Positions 18,591 to 53,861 of a stretch of 64,000 nt of DNA are shown one piece after another. The stretch comes from Enoplosus armatus (lineage: Eukaryota > Chordata > Actinopteri > Centrarchiformes > Enoplosidae): contig NC_092189.1 of assembly GCF_043641665.1 (NCBI RefSeq), forward strand, positions 11,990,333 through 12,054,332. Direction: 5' to 3'. The notes under the pieces were generated by a model. The model did no database searches and was not told the DNA's origin. It was given only the letters and a program-made list of their open reading frames with translations. The position numbers were made by a program, and so were the translations under genes. How positions within the stretch are numbered: the first letter of the stretch is position 1; every line of letters starts with the position of its first letter.

Positions 18591-18611
18591 TCCAGTACCA
18601 TGGACAGAGAC
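18591..18611 (+). promoter_or_regulatory. RE1/NRSE site upstream of A7
   Basis: TCCAGTACC, AT, GGACAGAGAC. Canonical gap, three or four mismatches spread over both halves. It lies only 162 bp before the A7 CGCT box. Confidence 0.65.
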
Positions 18612-30537: not shown

Positions 30538-30556
30538 GACGTTTACTGGTGCCACA

Positions 30557-30790: not shown

Positions 30791-33259
30791 ATGGGATTTA
30801 TGCAACGTGGAATAATGTGGAACAAATTGCCTGCATGGCAGGTGTTTTTGTGGTGGCATCATTTCTTTCTCTTGTGGAGTACAATAGACGGACAGACTCG
30901 CTACAGCATCCCGGAGGAACTGAAACAGGGCTCTGTGGTAGGAAATCTAGCCAAAGATCTGGGTTTGGTTGTATCTGAACTATATCGACGTAAATTGCGG
31001 ATTACCTCGGAGGCTGGTAAGCAGTATTTTAGTATAGACTTGGGGAGGGGAGAACTGGTGGTGATTGATAGGATAGATAGGGAGGAACTGTGTGGACAAA
31101 GACCGTCATGTTTGTTGCCTTTGGAACTAGTTATCGATAACCCCCTTCAGCTGCATAGAGTCGAAATTGAAATACAGGATACAAACGATAATTCTCCTAG
31201 TTTTCTTACTAAAGAGAAAGTGGTGAAAATTGCAGAGCTGGTAAATCCAGGCGCGCGATTTCCTTTAGAAAGTGCACAAGATCCAGATGTCGGCACCAAT
31301 TCTGTACGCTCTTACCTCATAAGCAAAAATGACAATTTCAAATTGACTGTTAAAAACCACAAGGACGGAAGAAAAATCCCTGAACTGGTTCTGGAAAAAC
31401 CGCTTGATCGAGAAAAGCTGCCTGTGCACAATCTTATCCTCACCGCTGTAGATGGTGGAGATCCAGTGCGCTCGGGGACATCTGAGATTACAGTTATAGT
31501 ACTTGATATTAATGATAATGCGCCGCAGTTTGAGAGACAGGTATATGAGGCTAATGTCAGCGAAAAGGCAACACCTGGAACTGAAATATTGCATGTTAAA
31601 GCAACAGATTCAGACGAAGGACCAAATGGAGAAATTGAATATTTTTTTGCAGAGCAAACTACGGATCTGATTTTATCATTGTTTGACATAGAAGCTTCTA
31701 CTGGAGTTATTGTTGTCAAAGGAATTTTAGACCATGAAACAAACTCCTTACATAGATTTGACATAACTGCTAAAGACAAAGGGAATCCTGAGATGGATGG
31801 GCATTGTGGCGTCGAAATTAAAGTAGTTGACATTAACGACAACGTTCCTGAAATAATTGTGACGTCTTTAACAACACCTGTTCCAGAAGATTCCGCAATC
31901 GGAACAGTTATTGCATTAATAAGTGCAAAAGACCCAGATTCGGGTGACAATGGCAAGGTTACGTTGAGCGTGTCTTCCAAATCCCCCTTTAAGTTAAATC
32001 CGTCTGTCTCTAACCATTACTCTTTAGTGACGAATGGGCCACTTGACCGTGAAAACAATGGCCGGTATAGTATCAAAATAAGTGCTACTGATTCTGGAAA
32101 ACCCCCATTATCGAGTGAGAAAGTAATACTTGTTGAATTGTTAGATGTCAATGACAACCCACCAGTTTTCTCCCTGCCTTCATATGTCGTTTATGTAAAA
32201 GAGAACAATGCTCCTGGGAACATTTTATGCTCAGTGTCAGCAACTGATGCTGATTCTGGTGATAACGCGAAGATCTCCTACTCCATGTTGGACTCTAAAG
32301 TGCAGGACGTGTCTGTCTCATCTTATGTTTACATTAACTCAGATAACGGCAGCATCTACAGCATGCACTCGTTTGACTATGAGAAACTGAAGGTGTTTCA
32401 GATTCAGGTTCAGGCAAAGGACCAGGGCTCTCCGTCTCTCAGCAGCAACGCCACTGTCCATGTTTTTATCCTGGACCAGAACGACAATGCCCCCGCTGTT
32501 ATCTACCCCTCCTCCGCTGCCCTGGGCTCCCTCTCTCACCAGAGGATGCCTCGCTCCGCTAAAGCGGGTCACCTGGTTACTAAGGTGTCGGCCGTGGACG
32601 CTGACTCGGGCCATAACGCCTGGATCTCCTACAAACTGGCGGAGGCCACCGACGCCTCTCTGTTCACGGTCAATCTGTACACAGGGGAGGTGAGGACTAA
32701 ACGCGCTGTGTCCGAGCAGGACGACTCCTCTCAGAGGCTGCTTATAGAGATCAAGGACGACGGGGAACCGGTCCAGTCCGCCACCGTCACGGTGTCCATC
32801 CTGCTGGAGGACGGCCTCCATGAGCCCATCTTAGACCTCCGACAGAAAGCGGCCGAGCCCAGCAAGAAAACTGGGAGAATCACCCTTTATTTGATTCTCT
32901 CTCTGGCCTCGGTGTCCGTGCTGTCTCTGCTGACTTTTCTCATCTTAGCGGTTAAATGCATCAGGAGCAGCAGAAGCAGCGGTAGTTGCTGCACGAGACG
33001 GACCGACTGTGATGATTACAAGAACCCCAACAGAAACCTGCAGATTCAGCTCAACACCGATGGACCCATAAAGTACGTGGAGGTCCTGGGAGGAGACATG
33101 TTGTCTCAGAGTCAGTCGTTCAGGTCCTGTCTGTCTCCCATGTCAGAGTACAGTGATTTCACTCTGATTAAACCCAGCAGCACCACTGACTTTAAGGAGG
33201 TGATCAGTGTTCTGGATGCGTCTTTGCCCGACAGCACCTGGACCTTTGAGAGCCAGCAG
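30791..33259 (+). CDS. pcdhg: Protocadherin gamma variable exon B1
   Basis: 823 codons. First exon of the B group and the most divergent. Signal peptide region ends LLWSTIDGQ; the N-terminal 20 residues (MGFMQRGIMWNKLPAWQVFL) differ from the MTK start of B2-B7, and ATGs at 30,800 or 30,815 are possible alternatives. EC1 has CGQRPSC. EC1 (after its first part) to EC5 start are its own sequence (for example ITSEAGKQYFSIDLGRGEL). Two stretches are near-identical to B2-B7: 30,851-30,968 (signal peptide end and EC1 start) and from about 32,290 to the donor cag/gtgagc. Membrane helix LYLILSLASVSVLSLLTFLIL, then the QLNTDGPIKYVEVLGG tail. Confidence 0.92.
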
Positions 33260-33321
33260 GTGAGCAAAACAAAATGCAGACGTTGAGTTGCATTTACTCC
33301 GAGGGACTTCATAGTATTTGC

Positions 33322-33457: not shown

Positions 33458-33484
33458 TTCAGCACCACGACGGTGGACAGCGGC
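33458..33484 (+). promoter_or_regulatory. RE1 site with 8-nt gap upstream of B2
   Basis: TTCAGCACC, gap ACGACGGT, GGACAGCGGC. Left half perfect, right half one change. The centre-to-centre half-site distance is 6 bp longer than in a canonical RE1; such expanded sites are known REST targets. Confidence 0.8.
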
Positions 33485-33841
33485 ACTTTGAGAATGCAGT
33501 AATGCTTAAAGGCCTATGATCAAAGTATGTGTGTGAGCGCGTGTGTTTTGCCTCTGCTGTAGCTCATCTTTTCAGAAGAAAACATAAAAGTGATTGATTA
33601 AAAATCTCTCACAGTGAAGATTGTGATCGTTTACGTCTGATGTTGGATTAATCGTATTTCCTGTTCGTTCGTTCGTTCGTTCTCTCTTTCTTTCTGTTTT
33701 AAAAACATATTTTATAGTGGCATGCCACCTTTATATTGTTTGACGTCCTCTGAGTTTCAAAATAACTGCCTTTTGTTGAAGTGAAGGGGCACAAAGAGAA
33801 TAGATGCTGCCACTTTAAGAGTGTCGATCAGTTTCCCTCTC

Positions 33842-33920
33842 ATTGGATGGTAGAGGTGGATGCTGTGCACCAATAGGATTCACAACTGTACAAAGCAATC
33901 TAGTCCCTGCCCCCATGCAG
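33842..33920 (+). promoter_or_regulatory. Group B promoter block of B2
   Basis: ATTGG and CCAAT 23 nt apart around GAGGTGGATGCTGTGCA, then ACTGTACAAAGCAATC and a C-rich stretch ending CATGCAG. It lies 289 bp before the start codon. The B3 block is nearly the same over more than 130 bp. Confidence 0.78.
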
Positions 33921-34130
33921 CCCAGTGCTATAACGCGTAGAATGCAAAGAGCTCGAGGAGAGAGACAACAATGAGCTCGTATTTTATATTATGACAATTT
34001 TATATTTAGCTTACAACCATGCTCCGTAATTCTGGAAAATGTTCTATTGGATTAACATCTCCGAATATGGATTTCAGCCTTGTTCAGTACAGTATGTCGA
34101 TTGGAATTAACGTGTTATAGCGGACCAAGG

Positions 34131-36584
34131 ATGACAAAGAGAACAGGATACCGAGACTGGAGATGGCAGGCGCTTTGGTGGCATCATTTCTTTCTCTTGT
34201 GGAGTACAATAGACGGACAGACTCGTTACAGCATCCCGGAGGAACTGAAACAGGGCTCTGTGGTAGGAAATCTGGCCAAAGATCTGGGTTTGGGACTATC
34301 TGAAATTTTTGACCGTAAGCTGCGCGTCGCCTCTGAGGCTGGTGAGCAGTATTTCAGTGTGGACGCGGGGAAGGGCGAGCTGGTGGTGAATGACAGAATA
34401 GACAGAGAGGCTTTATGCGGACAAAGCGCCAGCTGTGTGTTGCCTCTGCAGGTTGTAATTGAAGACCCATTACAACTTTTCCGTGTTGAGGTAGAAATAC
34501 AAGACATGAATGATAATGCGCCTAGATTTCCATCAAATGATATCACATTGGAGGTTGCGGAATCTACGGCTTTAGGGGTTCGTTTTCCATTAGAGAGCGC
34601 CATAGACCCAGATGTTGGCAGTAATTCAGTAAAATCATACACTCTCAGTAAAGATGAATGTTTTAATATTAGAGTAAAAGAAGTTGCCGGTGGAAGGAAA
34701 GTCCCTGAATTGATTTTAGCAAAAAATTTAGACAGAGAGAAAAAGGCCGTTCATAAGCTTTTGTTGACAGCTCTAGATGGGGGCAACCCAGTGAGATCAG
34801 GGACCGCTCAGCTATCTGTTACAGTCCTTGACATCAACGATAACGTCCCAGCTTTTGGGAAAACGTTGTATAAAGTATCTATCAGTGAAAATGCTCCAGA
34901 GGGTGCATTGATAGTACAAACAAAAGCGACAGACATGGACGATGGTCAAAACGGAGAGATAGAATACTCATTTGGAGCGCACACATCAGACACTGTTCTC
35001 TCTGTTTTTAGTATCGATCATGTATCGGGAACAATATTTCTTAAAGGAAAACTAGACTTCGAGGCAAGTGAAAATTATGAATTAGATATAAGTGCGAAAG
35101 ATAGAGGCAGTCCGAGAATGGAGGGGCATTGTACTGTGCATGTTGACGTTTTAGATGTTAACGATAATGCCCCAGAAATAATACTCACCTCTCATCCAAA
35201 GCCAGTGCGCGAAGATTCACCTAATGGCACCGTAGTAGCTTTAATCAGTGCCCGAGACCTTGACTCCGGTGTTAACGGTAAAGTAACATTACAGCTCCCC
35301 AAGAGGTCTCCATTTACCCTGAAACCGTCGTTTTCTCATAATTACGCACTGGTTACCAGTGGTGCTTTAGATCGGGAAAATGTCTCCGAATATAATATTG
35401 AGATAACAGCCACTGATTCAGGCTCTCCTCCTCTGTCCAGTAAGAAAACTATACCTGTCAGCATCACTGATGTGAATGACAACCCTCCTGTATTCACTCA
35501 GCCCTCCTATAATGTATATTTAAAAGAGAATGGGGTACCAGGGTCTATACTGTTCTCAGTATCAGCATCTGACCTGGACTTTGGTGAAAACGCCAAAATC
35601 TCTTACTCTATACTGGACTCTAAAGTGCAGGACGTGTCTGTCTCATCTTATGTTTACATTAACTCAGATAACGGCAGCATCTACAGCATGCACTCGTTTG
35701 ACTATGAGAAACTGAAGGTGTTTCAGATTCAGGTTCAGGCAAAGGACCAGGGCTCTCCGTCTCTCAGCAGCAACGCCACTGTCCATGTTTTTATCCTGGA
35801 CCAGAACGACAATGCCCCCGCTGTTATCTACCCCTCCTCCGCTGCCCTGGGCTCCCTCTCTCACCAGAGGATGCCTCGCTCCGCTAAAGCGGGTCACCTG
35901 GTTACTAAGGTGTCGGCCGTGGACGCTGACTCGGGCCATAACGCCTGGATCTCCTACAAACTGGCGGAGGCCACAGACGCCTCTCTGTTCACGGTCAATC
36001 TGTACACAGGGGAGGTGAGGACTAAACGCGCTGTGTCCGAGCAGGACGACTCCTCTCAGAGGCTGCTTATAGAGATCAAGGACGACGGGGAACCGGTCCA
36101 GTCCGCCACCGTCACGGTGTCCATCCTGCTGGAGGACGGCCTCCATGAGCCCATCTTAGACCTCCGACAGAAAGCGGCCGAGCCCAGCAGGAAAACTGGG
36201 AGAATCACCCTTTATTTGATTCTCTCTCTGGCCTCGGTGTCCGTGCTGTCTCTGCTGACTTTTCTCATCTTAGCGGTTAAATGCATCAGGAGCAGCAGAA
36301 GCAGCGGTAGTTGCTGCACGAGACGGACCGACTGTGATGATTACAAGAACCCCAACAGAAACCTGCAGATTCAGCTCAACACCGACGGACCCATAAAGTA
36401 CGTGGAGGTCCTGGGAGGAGACATGTTGTCTCAGAGTCAGTCGTTCAGGTCCTGTCTGTCTCCCATGTCAGAGTACAGTGATTTCACTCTGATTAAACCC
36501 AGCAGCACCACTGACTTTAAGGAGGTGATCAGTGTTCTGGATGCGTCTTTGCCCGACAGCACCTGGACCTTTGAGAGCCAGCAG
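34131..36584 (+). CDS. pcdhg: Protocadherin gamma variable exon B2
   Basis: 818 codons, the exact length also of B3-B7. Start is the Met of MTKRTGYRDWRWQ, conserved in B2-B7; the frame opens further upstream only with a TTG. Signal peptide 1-30 ending STIDGQ. EC1 has CGQSASC. Calcium linkers begin near residues 125 (DMNDNAP), 234 (DINDNVP), 342 (DVNDNAP), 447 (DVNDNPP) and 557 (DQNDNAP). Membrane helix about 694-718, then a Ser/Arg/Cys-rich juxtamembrane stretch (RSSRSSGSCCTRR) and the QLNTDGPIKYVEVLGG and SPMSEYSDFTLIKP motifs. Codons 1 to about 105 and from about 418 to the end are near-identical to B3-B7; the part between is private. Donor cag/gtgagc. Confidence 0.93.
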
Positions 36585-36917
36585 GTGAGCTGAAAACAAC
36601 CATTGAACTTAATAATGATGAAAAAATTAGCATTATTATTTAGTACAAAAAGTACTCGATGGTAGCATTGTCTGTCATGAATGTCCATCAACAGTGCAAA
36701 CAAAAAAACGTACAAAATGCCTGTCTGTCTGCAGTGGTCTATGTGTCGGTCTGCCCTCTTTCCTGTCTCTTAGTTTCAATACATCATTGTGTTTTTATCA
36801 CACCTTTTGGCAGTGTGTATTTTAAATTTGTTTTCAAAGTGGGGAAATTTTCTTTGCAATAACTGTATTCAAAGACGGTTAAAATAGTTGTGTTGCATCA
36901 ATTTGGTGTTGGAACAT

Positions 36918-36944
36918 TTCAGCACCATGACAGCGAACAGCGAC
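36918..36944 (+). promoter_or_regulatory. RE1 site with 8-nt gap upstream of B3
   Basis: TTCAGCACC, gap ATGACAGC, GAACAGCGAC. One internal change in the right half. The gap itself contains GACAGC, so a shifted reading with a 1-nt gap is possible, but the 8-nt alignment fits better and matches the other B sites. Confidence 0.75.
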
Positions 36945-37260
36945 TGTGACGTGCAGCCATGATCATGCAACGTTAGAACAGTGTTGATTTATTTACTTTG
37001 TACAATTGCGTGGACACTACATAACATTTTAATACTTTTATGCTTTCTATTTTTTCTGTGATAGGAAATTCAATTTTATCGTTTCAATTAATTTGAAGCA
37101 CTTACTGCAAAGTGGTTTTAATTTATCTTCTATGTTTGACAACGACTAGGCTTTCTCATATTATTTGATATTCAGTGATATTTGTCATCATCATCCCAAA
37201 TGAAAGCTCACAAAGAGAATAGATGCTGCCACTTTAAGAGTGTCGATCAGTTTCCCTCTC

Positions 37261-37340
37261 ATTGGATGGTGGTGGTGGATGCTGTGCACCAATAGGATTC
37301 AGAACTGTACAAAGCAATCTAGTCCCTGCCCCCATGCAGC
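37261..37340 (+). promoter_or_regulatory. Group B promoter block of B3
   Basis: ATTGG and CCAAT 23 nt apart around GGTGGTGGATGCTGTGCA, then ACTGTACAAAGCAATC. It lies 292 bp before the start codon. Homology with B2 reaches back to about 37,207 and forward past the CTCGAGGAGAGAGACA stretch. Confidence 0.78.
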
Positions 37341-37552
37341 CTTAACGCTGTAACACGTTGAATGCAAAGAGCTCGAGGAGAGAGACAGCAATGAGCTCGT
37401 ATTTTCTAAGATTTAAACATGTAAATTTTAGCTTACAGCCATGCTCAAACATTGTGGCTTTTCTTCTTTGGGTTTATTTCCTACTATCATGGATTCCAAC
37501 ATTTTCTTAAACAAGATCACGATTGGAATTAATGTGTTATAGCGGATCAAGG

Positions 37553-40006
37553 ATGACAAAGACAATAGGATACCGAGACTGGAGATGGCAGGCGCTTTGG
37601 TGGCATCATTTCTTTCTCTTGTGGAGTACAATAGACGGACAGACTCGTTACAGCATCCCGGAGGAACTGAAACAGGGCTCTGTGGTAGGAAATCTGGCCA
37701 AAGATCTGGGTTTGGGACTATCAGACATTTTTGACCGTAAGATGCGCGTCGCCTCTGAGGCTGGTGAGCAGTTTTTCAGTGTGGATGCGGGGAAGGGCGA
37801 GCTGGTGGTGAATGAGAGAATAGACAGAGAGGCTTTATGCGGACAAAGCGCCAGCTGTGTTCTACCTCTGCAAGTAGTCGTTGAAAATCCTTTGCAGTCT
37901 CATCGAATTGAAGTGGAAATACGAGACGTAAATGACAATTCTCCTAGTTTTCTTACACAGGAGATTAACCTTAAAATACCAGAATCAGTTGCGATTGGCA
38001 AACGTTTTCCTTTGGAGAGCGCAGAGGACCCTGATGTTGGAAGCAATTCTTTGAAAACTTACTCTCTGAGCAAAAACGATTATTTTTCTCTAAAATTTAA
38101 AGACACAAAAAATGGTAAAGCTGTCCCTGAATTGGTGTTAGAAAAGCCGTTAGACCGGGAAAAGGATGCTCTCCATCAGCTGCTGTTGACAGCATTAGAT
38201 GGGGGAAACCCGGTCACATCGGGAACCTGTAAGATTATCATTACTGTGCTTGATAATAACGACAATTTTCCAGTATTCAATGAAAATGAGTACAAAGTGT
38301 CTTTGAAAGAAAACAGCACCAAAGGAACACTTGTAATTAAACTTAAAGCTACAGATGCTGACGATGGTCTTAATGGTGAAGTTAAATATTCTTTCGGGTC
38401 CCGCACTCCAGACTTTGTGTTGTCAACATTTGACATCAATGATATAACAGGAGACATCGTATTAAAAGGAGGATTAGATTATGAGACTTCTAAATCATAC
38501 CTTATTGATATAACTGCTAAAGACAAAGGCATTCCCGAAATGGAGGGCCATTGTCGTGTACAGTTGGACGTAGAGGACATAAATGACAATTCTCCAGAAA
38601 TTGTGCTTACTTCAAAACCCAGTCCTGTACGCGAGGACGCACCAAGTGGCACAGTAGTGGCTTTAATCAGTGCACGAGACCTTGACTCCGATGTTAACGG
38701 TAAAGTGAAGTTACAGCTCCCTAAAGGTTCTCCCTTTACTCTGAAACCATCGTTCTCTAATAATTACGAACTGGTCACCAGTGGTCCTTTAGACCGAGAG
38801 AGTTTCTCAGAGTATAATATTGAGATAACAGCCACTGATTCAGGCTCTCCTCCTCTGTCCAGTAAGAAAACTATACCTGTCAGCATCACTGATGTGAATG
38901 ACAACCCTCCTGTATTCACTCAGCCCTCCTATAATGTATATTTAAAAGAGAATGGGGTACCAGGGTCTATACTGTTCTCAGTATCAGCATCTGACCTGGA
39001 CTTTGGTGAAAACGCCAAAATCTCTTACTCTATACTGGACTCTAAAGTGCAGGACGTGTCTGTGTCATCTTATGTTTACATTAACTCAGATAACGGCAGC
39101 ATCTACAGCATGCACTCGTTTGACTATGAGAAACTGAAGGTGTTTCAGATTCAGGTTCAGGCAAAAGACCAGGGCTCTCCGTCTCTCAGCAGCAACGCCA
39201 CTGTCCATGTTTTTATCCTGGACCAGAACGACAATGCCCCCGCTGTTATCTACCCCTCCTCCGCTGCCCTGGGCTCCCTCTCTCACCAGAGGATGCCTCG
39301 CTCCGCTAAAGCGGGTCACCTGGTTACTAAGGTGTCGGCCGTGGACGCTGACTCGGGCCATAACGCCTGGATCTCCTACAAACTGGCGGAGGCCACCGAC
39401 GCCTCTCTGTTCACGGTCAATCTGTACACAGGGGAGGTGAGGACTAAACGCGCTGTGTCCGAGCAGGACGACTCCTCTCAGAGGCTGCTTATAGAGATCA
39501 AGGACGACGGGGAACCGGTCCAGTCCGCCTCCGTCACGGTGTCCATCCTGCTGGAGGACGGCCTCCATGAGCCCATCTTAGACCTCCGACAGAAAGCGGC
39601 CGAGCCCAGCAGGAAAACTGGGAGAATCACCCTTTATTTGATTCTCTCTCTGGCCTCGGTGTCCGTGCTGTCTCTGCTGACTTTTCTCATCTTAGCGGTT
39701 AAATGCATCAGGAGCAGCAGAAGCAGCGGTAGTTGCTGCATGAGACGGACCGACTGTGATGATTACAAGAACCCCAACAGAAACCTGCAGATTCAGCTCA
39801 ACACCGATGGACCCATAAAGTACGTGGAGGTCCTGGGAGGAGACATGTTGTCTCAGAGTCAGTCGTTCAGGTCCTGTCTGTCTCCCATGTCAGAGTACAG
39901 TGATTTCACTCTGATTAAACCCAGCAGCACCACTGACTTTAAGGAGGTGATCAGTGTTCTGGATGCGTCTTTGCCCGACAGCACCTGGACCTTTGAGAGC
40001 CAGCAG
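37553..40006 (+). CDS. pcdhg: Protocadherin gamma variable exon B3
   Basis: 818 codons, start MTKTIGYRDWRWQ; an ATG at 37,532 is in frame upstream but lies outside the conserved block. EC1 reads EQFFSVDAGKGELVVNERIDRE with CGQSASC. Private EC2-EC4 include a DNNDNFP linker after EC2 and DINDNSP after EC3. The shared 3' part carries the Ser form (VQSASVTV), the Arg form (PSRKTG) and the Met form (CCMRRTD) of three segregating sites. Donor cag/gtgagc. Confidence 0.93.
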
Positions 40007-40917
40007 GTGAGCAAAGAGTAAAATAATTTTTTATGTGTATATTCTCACACGATTTCCTTAATTTTTCGGTTTCTTGCCTTTCTGTCCTCAAGAAATTTGA
40101 TTTGATATGATGCACACACACTTTTAAAGTATTATCACACTCAGGTTTATATTTTTACAATTATTTTTAAGGAACGTCTAATAGAGCAACATGCCTTTCA
40201 CTCGCATGTTTTTTATATTTTTTCATAAATGAGTTCGTAGATGTGGGGCTTTATGTGACTCTGTTTGTGACTGGATGATTGTCTGATTCAAACAGCGACG
40301 CAAACTAAGCAAGTACAATAGCCAATGTTTCTTGGTATTGTAATCTATCTGATTAAAATCGCAGCATGTACTGGAAGTCTAAAGCTCCATTTAGTTTCAT
40401 TTATTTGAGTGTGGGTTTCGTTTTTAGACACCTTGCAAAATGTAAGTGAATGAATTGCAAAAGTCAAAGCAGTCAAGATAAAGAGAAAACATTTATCATA
40501 ATTTTAAATAAACACCTCTAATTTCATGTAACTGCTCATTTGAATAAGCAGCCCATTGTGCCTTTTCGTGCATTTTTGAATTGCAGTGCTGGGTCTGGAG
40601 CACATTGCTGTTTCCATCTTATTGGCTGTAGGGTAGATGCTGTGCACCAATAGCATTAGGAGTTGTACAAAGAGATCTACTCCCTCCCCCACCCATCCTC
40701 ATCACTGTAGCCAGTACATTGCTTCAACCCCGAGATGAGAGGAGGGTGCGTTTAGACACTCAGATTTAATAATATACCTTTAATTTGCATCTCATGATGC
40801 ATAAATATGGCTATTTATGGAGTACAGCAAGTTCGTCGTTGATGGATTTTTACATTGACCTCTTTATTCTGAACAATATTTCGCTGGGAAATAACGCCGT
40901 ATTGTAACGGACCGGAG
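40007..40917. other. Spacer between B3 and B4
   Basis: AT-rich non-coding DNA with the B4 promoter block (40,621-40,690). No intact RE1; a decayed look-alike lies at 40,422-40,443. Confidence 0.65.
40621..40690 (+). promoter_or_regulatory. Group B promoter block of B4
   Basis: ATTGG and CCAAT separated by 21 nt instead of 23, around AGGGTAGATGCTGTGCA, then GTTGTACAAAGAGATCTACTCC. It lies 297 bp before the start codon. Confidence 0.76.
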
Positions 40918-43371
40918 ATGACAAAGAGAATGGGATACCGAGACTGGAGATGGCAGGCGCTTTGGTGGCATCATTTCTTTCTCTTGTGGAGTACAATAGA
41001 CGGACAGACTCGTTACAGCATCCCAGAGGAGCTGGAGCTTGGCTCTATGGTTGGAAATCTGGCCAAAGATCTGGGTTTGGGACTATCAGATATTTTTGAC
41101 CGTAAGCTGCGTGTCGCCTCTGAGGCTGGTGAGCAGTTTTTCAGTGTGGACGCGGGGAAGGGCGAGCTGGTGGTGAATGACAGAATAGACAGAGAGGCTT
41201 TATGCGGACAAAGTGTCAGCTGTGTTCTACCTCTGCAGGTTGTAATAGAGAACCCGCTGCAGTTACACCGGATAGAAGTGGAAATAAGAGACGTAAATGA
41301 CAATGCTCCTAGTTTTCTCAAAAGCGAACACATAATAGAAATAGCTGAATCCACCGTTGTAGGTGTGCGTTTTCCCTTAGAGAGTGCAGAGGATCCCGAT
41401 GTTGGGAGTAACGGATTAAAGACGTATACACTAAGCAAAGATGAGTGCTTCACTTTAAAAGTTAAAGAAATTGAAAATGGACGAAAAATACCAGAATTGG
41501 TGTTAAATAAATCTTTGGACCGCGAGAAAAAAGCCATTCACAGTTTGTTTCTTACTGCTGTGGACGGAGGCAATCCGGTTAAATCTGGAACTTCAAAAAT
41601 AACTATAAATGTGCTTGATAATAACGACAATGTACCATTATTTGAAAATGCTTTTTATAAAATTGCTGTTCAAGAAAACAGTGCGAATGGCTCCTTTGTA
41701 ATTACAACAAAAGCAACCGACATAGATGAAGGTCCAAATGGAGAAATTGAGTACTCGCTTGGGATACACACACCACCATCAGTGCTCTCATTATTTCATA
41801 TAGATGCTGTAACGGGAGACATATTTTTGAAAAACCAGCTCGACCACGAAACTCAAGCCTCATATCGAATAGACATTAGTGCAAAAGACAAAGGCTTGCC
41901 TAAAATGGAGGGTCACTGCACTGTGCAGGTGGATGTCTTAGATGTTAATGATAACGCCCCAGAAATAGTTTTAACTTCAAAACCCACTTCTGTGCCCGAA
42001 GACTCTCGCAGTGGGACAGTCGTGGCTTTACTGAGCGTCCGTGACCTTGATTCCGGTGATAACGGTAAAGTGACGTTACAAATTCCCAAACGTTCTCCTT
42101 TCACTCTAAAACCATCATTTTCTAATAATTACGCCCTGGTTACCAGTGGTGCTTTAGACCGAGAGAGTTTCTCACAGTATAATATTGAGATAACAGCCAC
42201 TGATTCAGGCTCTCCTCCTCTGTCCAGTAAGAAAACTATACCTGTCACCATCACTGATGTGAATGACAACCCTCCTGTATTCACTCAGCCCTCCTATAAT
42301 GTATATTTAAAAGAGAATGGGGTACCAGGGTCTATACTGTTCTCAGTATCAGCATCTGACCTGGACTTTGGTGAAAACGCCAAAATCTCTTACTCTATAC
42401 TGGACTCTAAAGTGCAGGACGTGTCTGTCTCATCTTATGTTTACATTAACTCAGATAACGGCAGCATCTACAGCATGCACTCGTTTGACTATGAGAAACT
42501 GAAGGTGTTTCAGATTCAGGTTCAGGCAAAGGACCAGGGCTCTCCGTCTCTCAGCAGCAACGCCACTGTCCATGTTTTTATCCTGGACCAGAACGACAAT
42601 GCCCCCGCTGTTATCTACCCCTCCTCCGCTGCCCTGGGCTCCCTCTCTCACCAGAGGATGCCTCGCTCCGCTAAAGCGGGTCACCTGGTTACTAAGGTGT
42701 CGGCCGTGGACGCTGACTCGGGCCATAACGCCTGGATCTCCTACAAACTGGCGGAGGCCACCGACGCCTCTCTGTTCACGGTCAATCTGTACACAGGGGA
42801 GGTGAGGACTAAACGCGCTGTGTCCGAGCAGGACGACTCCTCTCAGAGGCTGCTTATAGAGATCAAGGACGACGGGGAACCGGTCCAGTCCGCCACCGTC
42901 ACGGTGTCCATCCTGCTGGAGGACGGCCTCCATGAGCCCATCTTAGACCTCCGACAGAAAGCGGCCGAGCCCAGCAAGAAAACTGGGAGAATCACCCTTT
43001 ATTTGATTCTCTCTCTGGCCTCGGTGTCCGTGCTGTCTCTGCTGACTTTTCTCATCTTAGCGGTTAAATGCATCAGGAGCAGCAGAAGCAGCGGTAGTTG
43101 CTGCACGAGACGGACCGACTGTGATGATTACAAGAACCCCAACAGAAACCTGCAGATTCAGCTCAACACCGATGGACCCATAAAGTACGTGGAGGTGCTG
43201 GGAGGAGACATGTTGTCTCAGAGTCAGTCGTTCAGGTCCTGTCTGTCTCCCATGTCAGAGTACAGTGATTTCACTCTGATTAAACCCAGCAGCACCACTG
43301 ACTTTAAGGAGGTGATCAGTGTTCTGGATGCGTCTTTACCCGACAGCACCTGGACCTTTGAGAGCCAGCAG
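40918..43371 (+). CDS. pcdhg: Protocadherin gamma variable exon B4
   Basis: 818 codons, start MTKRMGYRDWRWQ directly at the first ATG of the frame. The shared 5' tract is broken by a private patch (about 41,022-41,060) that changes EELKQGSVVGN to EELELGSMVGN, and the CX5C loop reads CGQSVSC. Private EC2-EC4 contain DNNDNVP and DVNDNAP linkers. The shared 3' part starts about 42,170 and carries Thr, Lys and Thr at the three segregating sites, as in B1. Donor cag/gtgagc. Confidence 0.93.
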
Positions 43372-43926
43372 GTGAGCTGAAAACAATAGAAGACAAACTT
43401 TATAATTTTATATCGTTGTATACATTTTTTTAAACTTCAAACACTTAACTGTCCTCTGATAACATGACATTTGCCTGGTCCTTAAAACGTATGGTACGAG
43501 TTCTCAGTCACAAGCATTTCTTCTTTCTTTCTTTCTTTTTTTTTGCTAAACATTTTGTTTGGCGTTCTGGTGATCTTTCCTCTTGGCTGTCCTACATGTG
43601 TTTTACACTGATAATATAGCATCTTGTCATTTTATGTTATCAGTTTGTTCAATCGTTATTGTCAGTTAAAGAATGCAAACAAGATATTGAAATCACTACG
43701 TCCTCATTGCAACCTAGTCATCTTCGTCAGCACATGCTGGACCCTTGTTGATCGCGTACTTTCTGTTTGCAAAGAGGATTTTAACTTTTCACCCTGCCTA
43801 CTATTTGTTTCTGCTACAAAGATCTACGTTGTGTCAAAGTTCACATTTTGTAGTTAGCTGTGTTTGCCTGGGACTGTATTAGGGTTTTGTAATGCTCCCT
43901 TTATTGTTGTCTGAATGGCACTTTGT

Positions 43927-43953
43927 TTCAGCACCACAGAGCTGGACAGCGAA
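43927..43953 (+). promoter_or_regulatory. RE1 site with 8-nt gap upstream of B5
   Basis: TTCAGCACC, gap ACAGAGCT, GGACAGCGAA. Left half perfect; the right half differs only in its last two bases. It lies 324 bp before the B5 promoter block. Confidence 0.8.
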
Positions 43954-44250
43954 ACCTTCAGGCTTGTTTATTACAGGTTTTAACTGCTTTCAGTGATCAA
44001 ACTGCACAATACTATCACATATCTTCTGATTCAAATCACAAAAATAGTTTGTTTCATGAAAAGTTCGAATAACCGGAACACAGACAGTATTTGTATTTTT
44101 CTAATCAGATTTCATTTTATTTGCATTAACGTTATCGGCCACGTGTAGCAGCTGGCAGCGTACCATTTCTTTTATCACACTCATAATGCATCGAGGCAGA
44201 TTCTTTTCAGGGCGGCTGTGGCTTTAAACGCACTGCTCAGCCCCCTTCTT

Positions 44251-44330
44251 ATTGGCTGGTAGAGATGGACATTGTGCACCAATGAAACGTAGAACTGTAC
44301 AAAGAGATCTACTCCCTCCCCCATGCAGCC
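44251..44330 (+). promoter_or_regulatory. Group B promoter block of B5
   Basis: ATTGG and CCAAT 23 nt apart around AGAGATGGACATTGTGCA, then ACTGTACAAAGAGATCTACTCC. It lies 284 bp before the start codon. Confidence 0.77.
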
Positions 44331-44534
44331 TGAAGCACCGTACACATTCTCACTGCAAGGAGCTGGGTGAGAGGGAGTGATGCTCTTATCGGAATTAAAA
44401 AAAGAAAAATCTTTATTTCGTTTTTGGTATGAAGCGATTTTGGATCTTTGTTTTGGATTAATGCTCTAAGGCAATGGATGGTAACTATCTACTTTTCGAT
44501 TATCTCAATGGGAAATCATTCTAACGGACCGGGG

Positions 44535-46988
44535 ATGACAAAGACAATAGGATACCGAGACTGGAGATGGCAGGCGCTTTGGTGGCATCATTTCTTTCTC
44601 TTGTGGAGTACAATAGACGGACAGACTCGTTACAGCATCCCGGAGGAACTGAAACAGGGCTCTGTGGTAGGAAATCTAGCCAAAGATCTGGGTTTGGGAC
44701 TATCAGACATTTTTGACCGTAAGCTGCGCGTCGCCTCTGAGGCTGGTGAGCAGTATTTCAGTGTGGATGCGGGGAAGGGCGAGCTGGTGGTGAATGACAG
44801 AATAGACAGAGAGGCTTTATGTGGACAAAGCGCCAGCTGTGTGTTGACTCTGCAAGTTGTCATTGATAAACCGTTACAACTACACCGAGTTGAGGTGGAA
44901 ATACAAGATATTAATGATAATTCTCCAAGATTCCCTTCGCAAGATATAACATTACAGATAGCAGAGTCAACAGCGTCAGGAGCACGTTTTCCTTTGGAGA
45001 CCGCGCAAGATCTTGACGTTGGAGTGAATTCCGTGAGGTCGTATACTCTGAGTAAGGACGACTTTTTTAGTTTGAAAATAAAAGATGTATCCGGTGGGAG
45101 GAAAGTGCCAGAGCTAGTCTTGTCTAAATCTCTCGACAGAGAAAAGAATCCTATACATCAGCTTCAACTAACAGCTGTAGACGGGGGAACCCCAGTTAAA
45201 TCTGGGACCTCACAGATAACCATCAATGTGCTTGACAATAACGATAATTTTCCTGTATTTGAGAAAAATATTTACAAAGTTTCCATAAGCGAAAATAGCG
45301 TACAAGGTGCATCTATCGTGAAACTTATAGCAAAAGATACTGATGAAGGTCCTAATGGAGAAGTAGACTATTCATTTGGAACGCACACACCAGATAATGT
45401 CCTATCTGTGTTTGATATTGATTCACTCACCGGGGAAATACGTCTTCTAGGGAAATTAGATTTCGAAACAAATGCAAATTATGAAATTGACATTTGCGCA
45501 AGAGACAAAGGAACCCCGAGAATGGAGGGGCATTGCACTGTCCATATTGAAGTGTTAGATGTTAACGATAATTCTCCAAATATATTTCTGACCTCTCAAC
45601 CAAACTCTGTGCCCGAGGACTCACCAAGTGGTACTGTAGTGGCTTTAATCAGTGCCCGAGACCTTGACTCTGGTGACAACGGTAAAGTGACGTTACAGCT
45701 TCCGAAGGGATCCCCTTTTAATCTGAAACCCTCCTTTTCTGATAATTACGCCCTGGTTACCAGTGGTGCTTTAGACAGAGAGAGTTTCTCCGAATATAAT
45801 ATTGAGATAACAGCCACTGATTCAGGCTCTCCTCCTCTGTCCAGTAAGAAAACTATACCTGTCAGCATCACTGATGTGAATGACAACCCTCCTGTGTTCA
45901 CTCAGCCCTCCTATAATGTATATTTAAAAGAGAATGGGGTACCAGGATCTATACTGTACTCAGTATCAGCATCTGACCTGGACTTTGGTGAAAACGCCAA
46001 AATCTCTTACTCTATACTGGACTCTAAAGTGCAGGACGTGTCTGTCTCATCTTATGTTTACATTAACTCAGATAACGGCAGCATCTACAGCATGCACTCG
46101 TTTGACTATGAGAAACTGAAGGTGTTTCAGATTCAGGTTCAGGCAAAGGACCAGGGCTCTCCGTCTCTCAGCAGCAACGCCACTGTCCATGTTTTTATCC
46201 TGGACCAGAACGACAATGCCCCCGCTGTTATCTACCCCTCCTCCGCTGCCCTGGGCTCCCTCTCTCACCAGAGGATGCCTCGCTCCGCTAAAGCGGGTCA
46301 CCTGGTTACTAAGGTGTCGGCCGTGGACGCTGACTCGGGCCATAACGCCTGGATCTCCTACAAACTGGCGGAGGCCACCGACGCCTCTCTGTTCACGGTC
46401 AATCTGTACACAGGGGAGGTGAGGACTAAACGCGCTGTGTCCGAGCAGGACGACTCCTCTCAGAGGCTGCTTATAGAGATCAAGGACGACGGGGAACCGG
46501 TCCAGTCCGCCTCCGTCACGGTGTCCATCCTGCTGGAGGACGGCCTCCATGAGCCCATCTTAGACCTCCGACAGAAAGCGGCCGAGCCCAGCAAGAAAAC
46601 TGGGAGAATCACCCTTTATTTGATTCTCTCTCTGGCCTCGGTGTCCGTGCTGTCTCTGCTGACTTTTCTCATCTTAGCGGTTAAATGCATCAGGAGCAGC
46701 AGAAGCAGCGGTAGTTGCTGCACGAGACGGACCGACTGTGATGATTACAAGAACCCCAACAGAAACCTGCAGATTCAGCTCAACACCGATGGACCCATAA
46801 AGTACGTGGAGGTGCTGGGAGGAGACATGTTGTCTCAGAGTCAGTCGTTCAGGTCCTGTCTGTCTCCCATGTCAGAGTACAGTGATTTCACTCTGATTAA
46901 ACCCAGCAGCACCACTGACTTTAAGGAGGTGATCAGTGTTCTGGATGCGTCTTTGCCCGACAGCACCTGGACCTTTGAGAGCCAGCAG
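44535..46988 (+). CDS. pcdhg: Protocadherin gamma variable exon B5
   Basis: 818 codons from MTKTIGYRDWRWQ. An open frame extends 29 codons upstream and includes ATGs at 44,478 and 44,508, but it is not conserved. EC1 has CGQSASC followed by VLTLQVV, where the other B exons have VLPLQVV. Private EC2-EC4 include FPSQDITLQIAESTASGARFPLE. EC5 has SILYSVSAS instead of SILFSVSAS, a change inside the shared tract. Segregating sites: Ser, Lys, Thr. Donor cag/gtgagc. Confidence 0.93.
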
Positions 46989-47993
46989 GTGAGCTGAAAA
47001 CAACAGACCTGCTTCATACATTTTCAGTCATTATTGGCTCATAGATTTCTTGTAGCCTGAAATAAAATAACAACTCATCTGAACATTATTTTTTACTTTT
47101 TGATTACTTTCTGAATATAAAACAGCGCTGCAGTCTTTAATATGACATTACAATGTGTATGACAAGCGATCTCTTTCAGGTGGTTTAAGAAGTAGTTTTA
47201 TATTAGATGGAGATATTGTGAAGGTTGGTGGTTTTTCAACGTGATATGGTATCGTTCCCTTACAAAAATTAGTCCATTAAATTGTGAGAAATTTCTTTTG
47301 AAAATGTGTTTAAAGTAGGAACTCTAAGTGACCGTTTCTAATGATCACAATGTATTAATTTAAGAAATAATGCACTGCGCCTTAATTTCCAGAAGTTGCT
47401 TCCACATTATACAATATTTTTAATAACTTTGAATGGAATTTCATAAAATATATTTTCAAATTTAAACTGTTATTTTGATTTATTTATTAATATCATAGCC
47501 ATGACTAGTTGGCAGCAATCCTTTTAAAATAAGGTGTCTAGCACATTCTGGGTATTGGAATTAAAACCCATACATTTTTCAACAGCTGAATTTTTTTCTA
47601 CTTTTCTACAGAGACAATTATCACGAAAATCTGACGTTCCCTAATGTTACATTTGACAAAATACATTGCAACCTTGAGGGGGTGCAGTAGCTTTATAAGC
47701 AGAGTTAGGTCTCTGTGATTGGATAGCAGAGATGGATGCTGTGAACCAATAGCATACAGGACTGTACAAAGAGATCGACTCCATCCCCCATTCAGTCTCA
47801 CCACGGTAACCCTCACAGTGCTCAGAGCTGGAGAGGAGATGTGTTTATTCGAAGGCGTCCGGAATATATATTTTATTATCAATTATCTAAGGATTTAATT
47901 TAAATGGAGTGTCCATTCTGGCGATGACTTTGAACGTTGGGTTGTGTTGACGAATATCTCGATGGAAAAATAACGAATTTTAACGGAGCGAGG
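46989..47993. other. Spacer between B5 and B6
   Basis: Very AT-rich non-coding DNA with the B6 promoter block at 47,718-47,790. No intact RE1; a weak remnant is at 47,537-47,558. Confidence 0.65.
47718..47790 (+). promoter_or_regulatory. Group B promoter block of B6
   Basis: ATTGG and CCAAT 23 nt apart around AGAGATGGATGCTGTGAA, then ACTGTACAAAGAGATCGACTCC. It lies 276 bp before the start codon. Confidence 0.77.
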
Positions 47994-50447
47994 ATGACAA
48001 AGACAATAGGATACCGAGACTGGAGATGGCAGGCGCTTTGGTGGCATCATTTCTTTCTCTTGTGGAGTACAATAGACGGACAGACTCGTTACAGCATCCC
48101 GGAGGAACTGAAACAGGGCTCTGTGGTAGGAAATCTGGCCAAAGATCTGGGTTTGGGACTATCAGACATTTTTGACCGTAAGCTGCGTGTCGACTCTGAG
48201 GCTGGTAAGCAGTATTTCAACGTGGATGCGGGGAAGGGCGAGCTGGTGGTGAATGACAGAATAGACAGAGAGGCTTTATGCGGACAAAGCGCCAGCTGTG
48301 TGTTGCCTTTACAGGTTGTAACAGAGAATCCGCTACAGCTACACCGGATAGAAGTAGAAATAAGGGACATAAACGACAATTCTCCGATTTTTTCAACAGA
48401 GGAACGATCATTAAAAATAGCAGAATCTACTGCCACAGGCATACGCTTTCCCTTAGAAACAGCACAGGATCAGGACGTTGGTAGTAATTCAGTAAAATCT
48501 TATACTCTAAGTAAAGATGAGTGTTTTAGTTTAAGGATTAAAGAGTTGTCTGGTAATCGAAAGGTTCCGGAACTAGTGTTAGAGAAATCACTTGACAGAG
48601 AGAAACAAAGTGTCCATCAGTTATTACTGACAGCATTGGACGGAGGCAATCCTGTCAAAACTGGAACCACAAAAATCATAGTTACTGTACTCGACAACAA
48701 CGACAATGTCCCCGTTTTCAAAAGGCCGTTGTATAATGTAACTGTACATGAAAATAGTGCCGCTGGTTCAGTACTTGTAAAAGTTGAAGCAACAGACGCA
48801 GACGAGGGTGTTAATGGAGAGATCGAATACGCATTTGCTGAGCACACACCGCAGTCACTGCTGTCCATTTTTCATTTACATTCAGGTACAGGTGAAATAT
48901 CCTTAGTAGGACCATTAGATTATGAAAGCAATGCAATACATGAAATAGATATAACTGCTAAAGACAAAGGAGTTCCTGAGATGGAGGGCCACTGTCGTGT
49001 ACAAGTAGTAGTAATAGACATTAATGATAATGCCCCAGAAATAGTTCTAACTTCAAAACCAAACACAATACGCGAAGATGCACCAAGAGGCACTGTCGTT
49101 GCTTTAATCAGAGCACGAGACCTTGACTCCGGTGATAATGCCAAAGTCGCGTTAATACTCCCAAAGGGTTCTCCCTTCAGTTTGAAACCATCATTTTCTA
49201 ATAATTACGCACTGGTTACCAGTGGTGCTTTAGACCGAGAACGTTTCTCAGAGTATAATATTGAGATAACAGCCACTGATTCAGGCTCTCCTCCTCTGTC
49301 CAGTAAGAAAACTATACCTGTCAGCATCACTGATGTGAATGACAACCCTCCTGTATTCACTCAGCCCTCCTATAATGTATATTTAAAAGAGAATGGGGTA
49401 CCAGGGTCTATACTGTTCTCAGTATCAGCATCTGACCTGGACTTTGGTGAAAACGCCAAAATCTCTTACTCTATACTGGACTCTAAAGTGCAGGACGTGT
49501 CTGTCTCATCTTATGTTTACATTAACTCAGATAACGGCAGCATCTACAGCATGCACTCGTTTGACTATGAGAAACTGAAGGTGTTTCAGATTCAGGTTCA
49601 GGCAAAGGACCAGGGCTCTCCGTCTCTCAGCAGCAACGCCACTGTCCATGTTTTTATCCTGGACCAGAACGACAATGCCCCCGCTGTTATCTACCCCTCC
49701 TCCGCTGCCCTGGGCTCCCTCTCTCACCAGAGGATGCCTCGCTCCGCTAAAGCGGGTCACCTGGTTACTAAGGTGTCGGCCGTGGACGCTGACTCGGGCC
49801 ATAACGCCTGGATCTCCTACAAACTGGCGGAGGCCACCGACGCCTCTCTGTTCACGGTCAATCTGTACACAGGGGAGGTGAGGACTAAACGCGCTGTGTC
49901 CGAGCAGGACGACTCCTCTCAGAGGCTGCTTATAGAGATCAAGGACGACGGGGAACCGGTCCAGTCCGCCACCGTCACGGTGTCCATCCTGCTGGAGGAC
50001 GGCCTCCATGAGCCCATCTTAGACCTCCGACAGAAAGCGGCCGAGCCCAGCAAGAAAACTGGGAGAATCACCCTTTATTTGATTCTCTCTCTGGCCTCGG
50101 TGTCCGTGCTGTCTCTGCTGACTTTTCTCATCTTAGCGGTTAAATGCATCAGGAGCAGCAGAAGCAGCGGTAGTTGCTGCATGAGACGGACCGACTGTGA
50201 TGATTACAAGAACCCCAACAGAAACCTGCAGATTCAGCTCAACACCGACGGACCCATAAAGTACGTGGAGGTGCTGGGAGGAGACATGTTGTCTCAGAGT
50301 CAGTCGTTCAGGTCCTGTCTGTCTCCCATGTCAGAGTACAGTGATTTCACTCTGATTAAACCCAGCAGCACCACTGACTTTAAGGAGGTGATCAGTGTTC
50401 TGGATGCGTCTTTGCCCGACAGCACCTGGACCTTTGAGAGCCAGCAG
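47994..50447 (+). CDS. pcdhg: Protocadherin gamma variable exon B6
   Basis: 818 codons from MTKTIGYRDWRWQ; an in-frame ATG at 47,962 falls outside the frame of conservation. EC1 reads LRVDSEAGKQYFNVDAGKGEL with CGQSASC. Private EC2-EC4 include RPLYNVTVHENSAAGSV, with an extra N-glycosylation sequon (NVT), and a lysine-to-alanine change (DNAKVALILPKG). Segregating sites in the shared 3' part: Thr, Lys, Met. Donor cag/gtgagc. Confidence 0.93.
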
Positions 50448-50702
50448 GTGAGCAGTGAGTAGAACATAAATGGCATATACAGTTTTGTAAGACTTTTACT
50501 TAAACCACAGAAACCACAAAGAAAGCACAACTTTTGCTTTCACGGTGAGAATCATAATAACAAGGTTGCTCAACAGATCATCCTATATTTGAAATCAAAA
50601 TATTAAATGTATATCCAAATCAAAAGTTATGTAGTTAACTTTACTTCACTTCAACAACAGTTGTGGTTTGACCTGAAGAGTGTGTTGGGTGTTGAATGGC
50701 TT

Positions 50703-50729
50703 TTCAGCACCACAGGGATGGACAGCGAC
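50703..50729 (+). promoter_or_regulatory. RE1 site with 8-nt gap upstream of B7
   Basis: TTCAGCACC, gap ACAGGGAT, GGACAGCGAC. Only one base of the two halves departs from consensus. It lies 420 bp before the B7 promoter block. Confidence 0.82.
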
Positions 50730-51200: not shown

Positions 51201-51407
51201 CTTCAGCACCAAAACCACAATGCTCGGAGTGGGAGGAGAGTAGGCAAATGGTTCATATACTCACAGTATAACATTATATCTTAATTTTATCTTTGACGAT
51301 GAACAGGCATCTTTTTAACGGAATATGTCACGCTCTCGGAATATGGATTTTGACTTTATATTCTCCTTTCTTGTGGATTGGAAATGATGTGTTTTACTGA
51401 ATCGGGG

Positions 51408-53861
51408 ATGACAAAGACAATGGGATACCGAGACTGGAGATGGCAGGCGCTTTGGTGGCATCATTTCTTTCTCTTGTGGAGTACAATAGACGGACAGACT
51501 CGTTACAGCATCCCGGAGGAACTGAAACAGGGCTCTGTGGTAGGAAATCTGGCCAAAGATCTGGGTTTGGGACTATCAGACATTTTTGACCGTAAGATGC
51601 GCGTCGCCTCTGAGGCTGGTGAGCAGTATTTCAGTGTGGACGCGGGGAAGGGCGAGCTGGTGGTGAATGACAGAATAGACAGAGAGGCTTTATGCGGACA
51701 AAGCGCCAGCTGTGTTCTACCTCTGCAAGTAGTTATTGAGGACCCGCTACAGTTACACCGAATTGAGGTTGAAATAAGAGATATTAATGATAATTCTCCA
51801 AGTTTCCTTTCAAACGAATTATCTTTAAAATTAGCCGAATCAGCAGCAGTTGCCACGCGCTTTCCTTTAGAGAGCGCAACAGACCCCGACGTTGGTACAA
51901 ATTCATTGAAAACATATACTCTCAGTAAAAATGAGTGTTGTTCCCTTAAAATAAAAGAAATTGAGGGTGGTAAGACCGTTCCGGAACTTGTTCTAGAAAA
52001 GCCTCTCGATCGAGAGAAAAAAGCAGTTCACAAAATATTACTAACAGCTTTAGACGGTGGGAATCCAGTAAGATCTGGAACCTCACAAATAACCATAAAT
52101 GTGCTTGACAACAATGATAACTTCCCGGTGTTTGAGAAAAATATTTACAAAGTCACCCTGGGTGAAAAAAGTATAAAAGGAGCTATTGTTATAAAGCCCA
52201 AAGCAACTGATGCAGATGAAGGTTTAAATGGTGAAATTGAATTCTCATTCGGCTCTCGGACACCAGATTCTGTTTTGTCAATGTTCGATATTAACCCCTT
52301 AACAGGTGAAATCACTCTGAAAGGAGAGTTAGACTATGAAACTACGAAGTCATATGACATTGATGTAACTGCAAAAGATAAAGGCAGCCCCGAAATGGAG
52401 GGCCACTGTCGCGTGCAAGTTGACATTACTGATTTCAATGATAACGCTCCAGATATAGTTTTCACTTCTCAGCCAAAGCCAGTGCGCGAAGACGCACCAA
52501 GTGGCACGGTAGTTGCTTTGATCAGTGCCCGAGACCTTGACTCCGGTGATAACGGTAAAGTAACATTACAACTCACCAAAGGCTCCCCCTTTAATTTGAA
52601 ACCATCCTTTTCTAATAATTACGCCCTGGTTACCAGTGGTGCTTTAGACAGAGAGAGCTGCTCGAACTATGATATTGAGATAACAGCCACTGATTCAGGC
52701 TCTCCTCCTCTGTCTAGTAAGAAAACTATACCTGTCACCATCACTGATGTGAATGACAACCCTCCTGTATTCACTCAGCCCTCCTATAATGTATATTTAA
52801 AAGAGAATGGGGTACCAGGGTCTATACTGTTCTCAGTATCAGCATCTGACCTGGACTTTGGTGAAAACGCCAAAATCTCTTACTCTATACTGGACTCTAA
52901 AGTGCAGGACGTGTCTGTCTCATCTTATGTTTACATTAACTCAGATAACGGCAGCATCTACAGCATGCACTCGTTTGACTATGAGAAACTGAAGGTGTTT
53001 CAGATTCAGGTTCAGGCAAAGGACCAGGGCTCTCCGTCTCTCAGCAGCAACGCCACTGTCCATGTTTTTATCCTGGACCAGAACGACAATGCCCCCGCTG
53101 TTATCTACCCCTCCTCCGCTGCCCTGGGCTCCCTCTCTCACCAGAGGATGCCTCGCTCCGCTAAAGCGGGTCACCTGGTTACTAAGGTGTCGGCCGTGGA
53201 CGCTGACTCGGGCCATAACGCCTGGATCTCCTACAAACTGGCGGAGGCCACCGACGCCTCTCTGTTCACGGTCAATCTGTACACAGGGGAGGTGAGGACT
53301 AAACGCGCTGTGTCCGAGCAGGACGACTCCTCTCAGAGGCTGCTTATAGAGATCAAGGACGACGGGGAACCGGTCCAGTCCGCCTCCGTCACGGTGTCCA
53401 TCCTGCTGGAGGACGGCCTCCATGAGCCCATCTTAGACCTCCGACAGAAAGCGGCCGAGCCCAGCAGGAAAACTGGGAGAATCACCCTTTATTTGATTCT
53501 CTCTCTGGCCTCGGTGTCCGTGCTGTCTCTGCTGACTTTTCTCATCTTAGCGGTTAAATGCATCAGGAGCAGCAGAAGCAGCGGTAGTTGCTGCACGAGA
53601 CGGACCGACTGTGATGATTACAAGAACCCCAACAGAAACCTGCAGATTCAGCTCAACACCGATGGACCCATAAAGTACGTGGAGGTCCTGGGAGGAGACA
53701 TGTTGTCTCAGAGTCAGTCGTTCAGGTCCTGTCTGTCTCCCATGTCAGAGTACAGTGATTTCACTCTGATTAAACCCAGCAGCACCACTGACTTTAAGGA
53801 GGTGATCAGTGTTCTGGATGCGTCTTTGCCCGACAGCACCTGGACCTTTGAGAGCCAGCAG
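51408..53861 (+). CDS. pcdhg: Protocadherin gamma variable exon B7
   Basis: 818 codons from MTKTMGYRDWRWQ; an in-frame ATG 24 bases upstream is not conserved. EC1 matches B3 (KMRVASEAGEQ) with CGQSASC. Private EC2-EC4 include a doubled Cys (SKNECCSLKIKE) and a DFNDNAP linker after EC3. EC4 end reads DRESCSNYDIEITA. Segregating sites: Ser, Arg, Thr. Last B exon; its donor cag/gtgagc lies about 1.1 kb before the C-type start codon. Confidence 0.93.

What the first reader, a model, noticed from the sequence alone, without database searches (positions are those of the whole stretch)
33458..50729. All group B REST sites share an expanded 8-nt half-site gap
Seen: RE1 sites before B2, B3, B5 and B7 (33,458; 36,918; 43,927; 50,703) and the reverse site before B1 (29,596) all have TTCAGCACC and a GGACAGCG-like half separated by exactly 8 nt. 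Group A sites in the same locus all have the canonical 2-nt gap. The gap sequences differ while the length is fixed, so length looks selected or inherited from one founder unit. Known: REST binds RE1 half-sites with centre spacing of about 11 bp or expanded 16-19 bp; 8 nt falls in the expanded class. Inference: the two exon groups may be silenced with different strength or timing.
Basis: partly seen in the sequence, partly recalled or inferred. Interest (0 to 1): 0.8.

Follow-up and report, generated by a model that had tools for sequence, protein, structure and literature searches.

The report
Two spacing classes of REST sites
In what looks like a fish protocadherin gene cluster, one family of exons carries the standard form of a neuron-specific silencer site and the neighbouring family carries a known stretched form with an 8-base gap, so the two families may be silenced with different strength outside neurons.

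Summary
Five REST/NRSF (RE1) sites with exactly 8 nt between half-sites lie upstream of group B exons B1 (minus strand), B2, B3, B5 and B7; simulations expect 0.0025 such gap-8 pairs per 64 kb. A3, B4 and B6 have none above shuffles. So spacing class follows exon family (6 of 6 against 5 of 5), but these are tandem paralogues, so the independent sample is small. B sites are conserved islands: left half 100%, right half 85%, inner gap and flanks near chance. Fixed length alone does not prove selection (P of no indel under neutrality 0.002 to 0.51, by assumed rate and tree length). An 8-nt gap is a known REST class: 7-9 bp in ChIP-nexus; only 8 and 9 bp silence in an MPRA, more weakly than 2 bp; the Pcdh-alpha HS5-1 enhancer has an 8-bp site. 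A review says fugu Pcdh promoters hold canonical and non-canonical NRSEs. The split by exon family is the possibly new part; orthologues could not be tested.

The parts
29596..29622 (-). RE1 of B1, gap 8 (TTCAGCACC ACATGTGT GGACAGCGCC), reversed, about 980 bp upstream of the B1 core promoter element
33458..33484 (+). RE1 of B2, gap 8 (ACGACGGT)
36918..36944 (+). RE1 of B3, gap 8 (ATGACAGC, right half GAACAGCGAC); overlapping gap-1 right half TGACAGCGAA
43927..43953 (+). RE1 of B5, gap 8 (ACAGAGCT)
50703..50729 (+). RE1 of B7, gap 8 (ACAGGGAT)
76..96 (+). RE1 of A1, gap 2, strong (30.2 bits)
3146..3166 (+). RE1 of A2, gap 2, weak (19.1 bits)
9548..9568 (+). RE1 of A4, gap 2 (24.0 bits)
12575..12595 (+). 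probable RE1 relic of A5, gap 2 (10.9 bits), at about the same distance from the core promoter as in A4 and A6
15627..15647 (+). RE1 of A6, gap 2 (27.8 bits)
18591..18611 (+). RE1 of A7, gap 2, weak (16.9 bits; left half TCCAGTACC)
30791..33286 (+). variable exon B1 (ORF)
34080..36593 (+). variable exon B2 (ORF)
37523..40021 (+). variable exon B3 (ORF)
40918..43380 (+). variable exon B4 (ORF), no RE1 pair above shuffles upstream
44448..46997 (+). variable exon B5 (ORF), protocadherin by Pfam and PDB sequence match
47937..50462 (+). variable exon B6 (ORF), no RE1 pair above shuffles upstream
51378..53870 (+). variable exon B7 (ORF)
33841..33895 (+). example (B2) of the group B core promoter element (ATTGG ... 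ACCAAT ... TGTACAAAG); TGTACAAAG lies 288-338 bp before the GQ..YSIPEE codons in B1-B7
15903..15912 (+). example (A6) of the group A core promoter element with CGCT box; pattern GCCGCT[AG]T[TC]G in A2-A7, variant GTCGCTGTTG in A1

Best explanation
REST then represses the nearby promoter, and units without a site (A3, B4, B6, the last exon) may be covered by neighbouring sites. The shared length most likely reflects inheritance from an early B unit plus REST's own requirement for 8 or 9 bp. Shown here: site positions, spacing, family partition, half-site conservation. Taken from mammalian papers: binding mode and weaker silencing. Inferred: REST binding in this species, the ancestry of the sites, cover by neighbours, and any expression difference between A and B.
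For: Five gap-8 sites against 0.0025 expected. Gap 2 in 6 of 6 A sites and gap 8 in 5 of 5 B sites (naive exact p=0.002, or 0.018 with the 3 strong A sites only; not corrected for paralogy). RE1s keep their distance to the downstream promoter: 276-294 bp above the core element in A4, A5, A6 and 369-465 bp in B2, B3, B5, B7. Half-sites 100% and 85% identical while flank 8-mers average 28%. BLAST aligns core-promoter parts within each family; the A-B matches at E up to 1e-3 all fall in one short stretch of the B2 unit with overlapping registers, which looks repetitive. Published: gaps are 2 or 7-9 bp, and HS5-1 has an 8-bp gap (PMC8096226 sections 20 and 23); only 8- and 9-bp gaps silence among non-canonical arrangements, weaker than 2 bp (PMC9903721 section 11); fugu Pcdh clusters hold canonical and non-canonical NRSEs, and NRSE deletion makes reporters ubiquitous in Xenopus (review PMC3601302 section 8 part 1, citing Tan et al. 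2010).
Against: No binding data for this species. Flanks of the B sites do not align (19 of 20 flank tests at p above 0.05), so descent from one founder is not shown; the B1 site is reversed and about 1 kb from its promoter; A2 (544 bp) and A7 (165 bp) also depart from their family's distance, and A1's was not computed. Position 9 C is 'barely conserved' in mammalian non-canonical sites, yet it is C in 5 of 5 here. B3 can also be read with a 1-bp gap. Length conservation is compatible with neutrality. One ChIP-PET paper words the expanded class as 'expanded by 7-11 base pairs' (PMC2573930); taken literally against a 2-bp spacer that would not include 8 nt; I did not see its figure. Two weak gap-8 pairs occur outside group B.
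Confidence: 0.72

Rival explanations
1. Convergence: B sites arose separately, and all show 8 nt because REST tolerates few gaps (2, or 7-9 in ChIP, 8-9 for silencing).
For: Flanks not alignable; B1 reversed and far from its promoter; the MPRA limits functional gaps to 8 and 9 besides 2.
Against: Near-consensus sites far outnumber altered-spacing sites in mouse ChIP-PET (70% against 5%, PMC2573930 passages), so five independent expanded sites and no canonical one in B would be odd; gap positions 1-2 are shared (p=0.0004).
Confidence: 0.2
2. Pure founder effect: the B sites share 8 nt only because they were copied; gap class has no functional meaning.
For: Neutral survival of gap length has P about 0.17-0.48 at the indel rate measured in B promoters; the units are tandem duplicates by their promoters and exons.
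Against: Half-sites are conserved in flanks at chance identity, so the sites look constrained; published data show that gap changes alter silencing.
Confidence: 0.3
3. The pairs are not REST sites but sites of other factors or chance half-sites.
For: No binding data here; the matrices are recalled.
Against: Chance expectation 0.0025; near-consensus half-sites; REST regulation of Pcdh clusters is published.
Confidence: 0.03

Closest known systems
Non-canonical (expanded, 7-9 bp gap) NRSE/RE1, for example the Pcdh-alpha HS5-1 enhancer site with an 8-bp gap (PMC8096226)
   Same: Same half-site order and 8-bp gap, in a clustered protocadherin locus
   Different: HS5-1 is one distal enhancer site; here five sites upstream of promoters recur in one exon family, and C at position 9 is kept in 5 of 5
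Fugu Pcdh-cluster NRSEs (Tan et al. 2010; known here only from the review PMC3601302 and from recall)
   Same: Fish Pcdh promoters with canonical and non-canonical NRSEs; their deletion broadens reporter expression
   Different: Whether gap class follows exon subfamily there could not be read
Mammalian PCDH gamma sites 'b' and 'c' inside variable exons (site c of gamma a6 has a canonical 2-bp gap; the class of site b was not seen)
   Same: One or two REST sites per gamma variable exon
   Different: Here the sites lie upstream of the exons; the best pairs inside exons reach at most 17.4 bits at gaps 2, 8 and 9

Membership tests
[quoted passage not shown]
   5 of 5 sites, with recalled matrices
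REST expanded (non-canonical) RE1 | Gap of 7-9 bp (ChIP-nexus) or 8-9 bp (silencing) | tested here: met
   8 nt in 5 of 5; B3 also has a gap-1 alternative
REST expanded (non-canonical) RE1 | Bound by REST in cells | not testable with these tools
   no binding data for this species at hand
REST expanded (non-canonical) RE1 | Silences a linked promoter | not testable with these tools
   needs a reporter assay
Canonical RE1 (group A) | Half-sites with 2-bp gap | tested here: met
   best pair at gap 2 in 6 of 7 A units, three of them weak
Clustered protocadherin | Large exon with six cadherin repeats and a cadherin cytoplasmic part | tested here: met
   five Cadherin stretches, Cadherin_2 and Cadherin_C_2 in 3 of 3 exons scanned out of 15; best PDB match protocadherin gamma B4 for 2 of 2 queried
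Clustered protocadherin | Splicing of each variable exon to shared constant exons | not tested
   a GT follows the conserved exon ends in the printed sequences, but constant exons were not identified in the window

The most novel reading that the evidence does not exclude
Gap class is a subfamily-wide setting of REST silencing strength: group B promoters are held by the weaker 8-nt form, compensated by better half-sites, so as REST falls during neurogenesis group B exons are released earlier, or leak more in progenitors, than group A exons.
Probability: 0.2. Interest if true: 0.65.

Novelty: new member of a known kind. Interest (0 to 1): 0.38.

Why it matters
If the split holds in other fish, this locus is a natural test of what the two REST binding modes do: the same cluster, the same cell, two promoter families that differ in RE1 gap. 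It would link the ZF6-flip model to protocadherin isoform choice. It also shows what scans with a fixed 2-bp gap miss, such as the zebrafish genome scan with TCAGCACCnnGGACAG in PMC3531662 (passages).

Tried and rejected
Searched the upstream units of A3, B4, B6 and the last exon for RE1 relics at gaps 2, 8 and 9: none above shuffles at p below 0.05 (closest: last exon, gap 9, p=0.06). Tested whether the B RE1s lie in a shared repeat or transposon: flanks do not align, so rejected. Tested whether gap letters or gap length show selection: gap positions 3-7 at chance, length not significant at the measured indel rate. Tested whether B half-sites score better than A half-sites: 25.5 of 30 comparisons favour B, p=0.067, not significant. 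Looked for a related coding locus in viral contigs: 9 pattern matches, none a relative. I did not scan genome contigs and did not run the protein search, so the species was not determined; no fish relative was obtained. Literature: six searches; in the listings shown (20 of 33, 6 of 6, 7 of 7, 17 of 17, 20 of 49, 3 of 3) no title or abstract start names RE1 gap class by protocadherin exon subfamily. Tan et al. 2010 is not held, so absence from print is not claimed. Papers seen: passages only of PMC2573930, PMC2824720, PMC1852091, PMC7811963, PMC3531662; passages and named sections of PMC8096226 (20, 23 and outline), PMC9903721, PMC3601302 (8, part 1 of 2), PMC4978886.

Full report
What is there. 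The window holds a clustered protocadherin locus. The three exons scanned (B5, A6, the last) each carry five Pfam Cadherin stretches, Cadherin_2 and Cadherin_C_2, and the best solved relative of the two compared (B5, A6) is protocadherin gamma B4.

Observation. A two-half-site scan with gaps 0-20 gave nine pairs at 20 bits or more: five with gap 8 (29622-, 33458+, 36918+, 43927+, 50703+), three with gap 2 (76, 9548, 15627) and one gap-1 alternative reading of the 36918 site. Simulations expect 0.0025 gap-8 pairs at 24 bits or more per window. Taking the best pair of each upstream unit added weaker gap-2 sites at A2 (3146, 19.1 bits), A7 (18591, 16.9) and a decayed one at A5 (12575, 10.9); the last lies 294 bp above its core promoter element, against 288 and 276 bp in A4 and A6. 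No pair above shuffles was found for A3, B4, B6 or the last exon. So 6 of 6 A sites have gap 2 and 5 of 5 B sites have gap 8; a naive exact test gives p=0.002, or 0.018 with strong A sites only, but tandem paralogues are not independent.

Results that do not fit neatly. Two weak gap-8 pairs lie outside group B (56032+ in the last exon, 17.4 bits; 62875-, 16.9 bits), against 0.155 expected at 16 bits or more. Seven weak gap-15 pairs also occur, six of them one coding stretch repeated in exons A1-A6. Each of the seven B exons has an identical 13.4-bit gap-8 pair near its 3' end (no p-value was computed for exons). None comes near the 25.2-33.2 bits of the five sites.

Position. The sites keep their distance to the downstream promoter: in B2, B3, B5 and B7 they lie 369-465 bp above the core element, in A4-A6 276-294 bp; exceptions are A2 (544), A7 (165) and B1 (980, reversed), and A1 was not computed. 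Group A promoters have a CGCT-box core (GCCGCT[AG]T[TC]G in A2-A7, a variant in A1). Group B promoters share a different core (ATTGG ... ACCAAT ... TGTACAAAG in 7 of 7). BLAST aligns core regions within each family; A-B matches are confined to one short stretch of the B2 unit. Gap class therefore goes with promoter type.

Selection or inheritance. Among the five B sites the left half is 100% identical, the right half 85%, the gap 45%, and flank 8-mers average 28%. Conservation in the gap is at its ends: A in 5 of 5 and C in 4 of 5 at positions 1-2 (p=0.0004), T in 4 of 5 at position 8; positions 3-7 are at chance. Each B site thus reads like a canonical RE1 (recalled consensus) with six bases inserted after position 11. 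Flanks of 150 bp align beyond shuffles in 1 of 20 tests (B5/B7 left, p=0.005), so copying is supported for that pair only. With the median of 0.033 indel events per substitution measured in B promoters and a star tree assumed, the gap keeps its length under neutrality with P 0.17-0.48; with an assumed rate of 0.12, 0.002-0.07. The fixed length by itself is not strong evidence of selection; the conserved half-sites are.

What is known. ChIP-nexus finds REST gaps of 2 or 7-9 bp and not 3-6; EMSA and molecular dynamics put ZF3-5 on the right half, ZF7-8 on the left half and ZF6 flipped out over the 8-bp gap of the HS5-1 site (PMC8096226, passages and sections 20 and 23). A reporter screen found silencing only with 8- and 9-bp spacers among non-canonical arrangements, weaker than with 2 bp (PMC9903721, passages and section 11). 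Altered spacing was 5% of mouse ChIP-PET sites, most often shortened to none or one bp or 'expanded by 7-11 base pairs' (PMC2573930, passages). A review states that fugu, mouse and human Pcdh clusters hold canonical and non-canonical NRSEs, in promoters in fugu, and that NRSE deletion makes reporter expression ubiquitous in Xenopus (PMC3601302, section 8 part 1). Tan et al. 2010 itself was not readable; from recall, it also reports that genes lacking an NRSE are governed by those of neighbours, which would cover A3, B4 and B6. Mammalian PCDH gamma NRSEs lie inside the variable exons.

Judgement. The sites are new members of a known class in a locus type where that class is already reported. 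The split by exon family is the interesting part. It predicts weaker silencing of group B, which half-site quality may offset (B scores higher in 25.5 of 30 comparisons, p=0.067, not significant). One point does not fit the mammalian model: position 9 C is kept in 5 of 5 B sites although ZF6 should not read it in the expanded mode. Shared ancestry or a residual contact could explain it.

Noticed in passing
30602, 33887, 37306, 40664, 44296, 47763, 51168: All seven group B promoters share a core (ATTGG, about 20 nt, ACCAAT, then TGTACAAAG at these positions), unlike the CGCT-box core of group A: two promoter types in one cluster.
   Followed up: partly
36918-36944: The B3 RE1 holds two overlapping right halves (TGACAGCG at gap 1, GAACAGCG at gap 8) that look like a 7-nt tandem repeat, a possible step by which gaps expand.
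   Followed up: partly
the five group B RE1 sites: Positions 9 (C) and 10 (A) are invariant, although mammalian expanded sites hardly conserve position 9.
   Followed up: partly
56032 (+) and 62875 (-): Two weak gap-8 RE1-like pairs outside group B, one inside the last exon.
   Followed up: partly
3' ends of exons B1-B7 (for example 46959): An identical weak gap-8 pair (13.4 bits) recurs in the 3' end of all seven B exons.
   Followed up: no
21414-30790: A 9.4-kb stretch separates groups A and B; its longest listed ORF (ATG/GTG/TTG start, bacterial code) is 140 aa.
   Followed up: partly
3' parts of exons A1-A6 and B1-B7: By eye, near-identical distal ectodomain and cytoplasmic parts against diverse N-terminal parts, as expected from the regional gene conversion reported for fugu (PMC1852091, passages).
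   Followed up: no
54893-57421: The last exon differs in its cytoplasmic part by eye and has no RE1 pair above shuffles upstream.
   Followed up: partly
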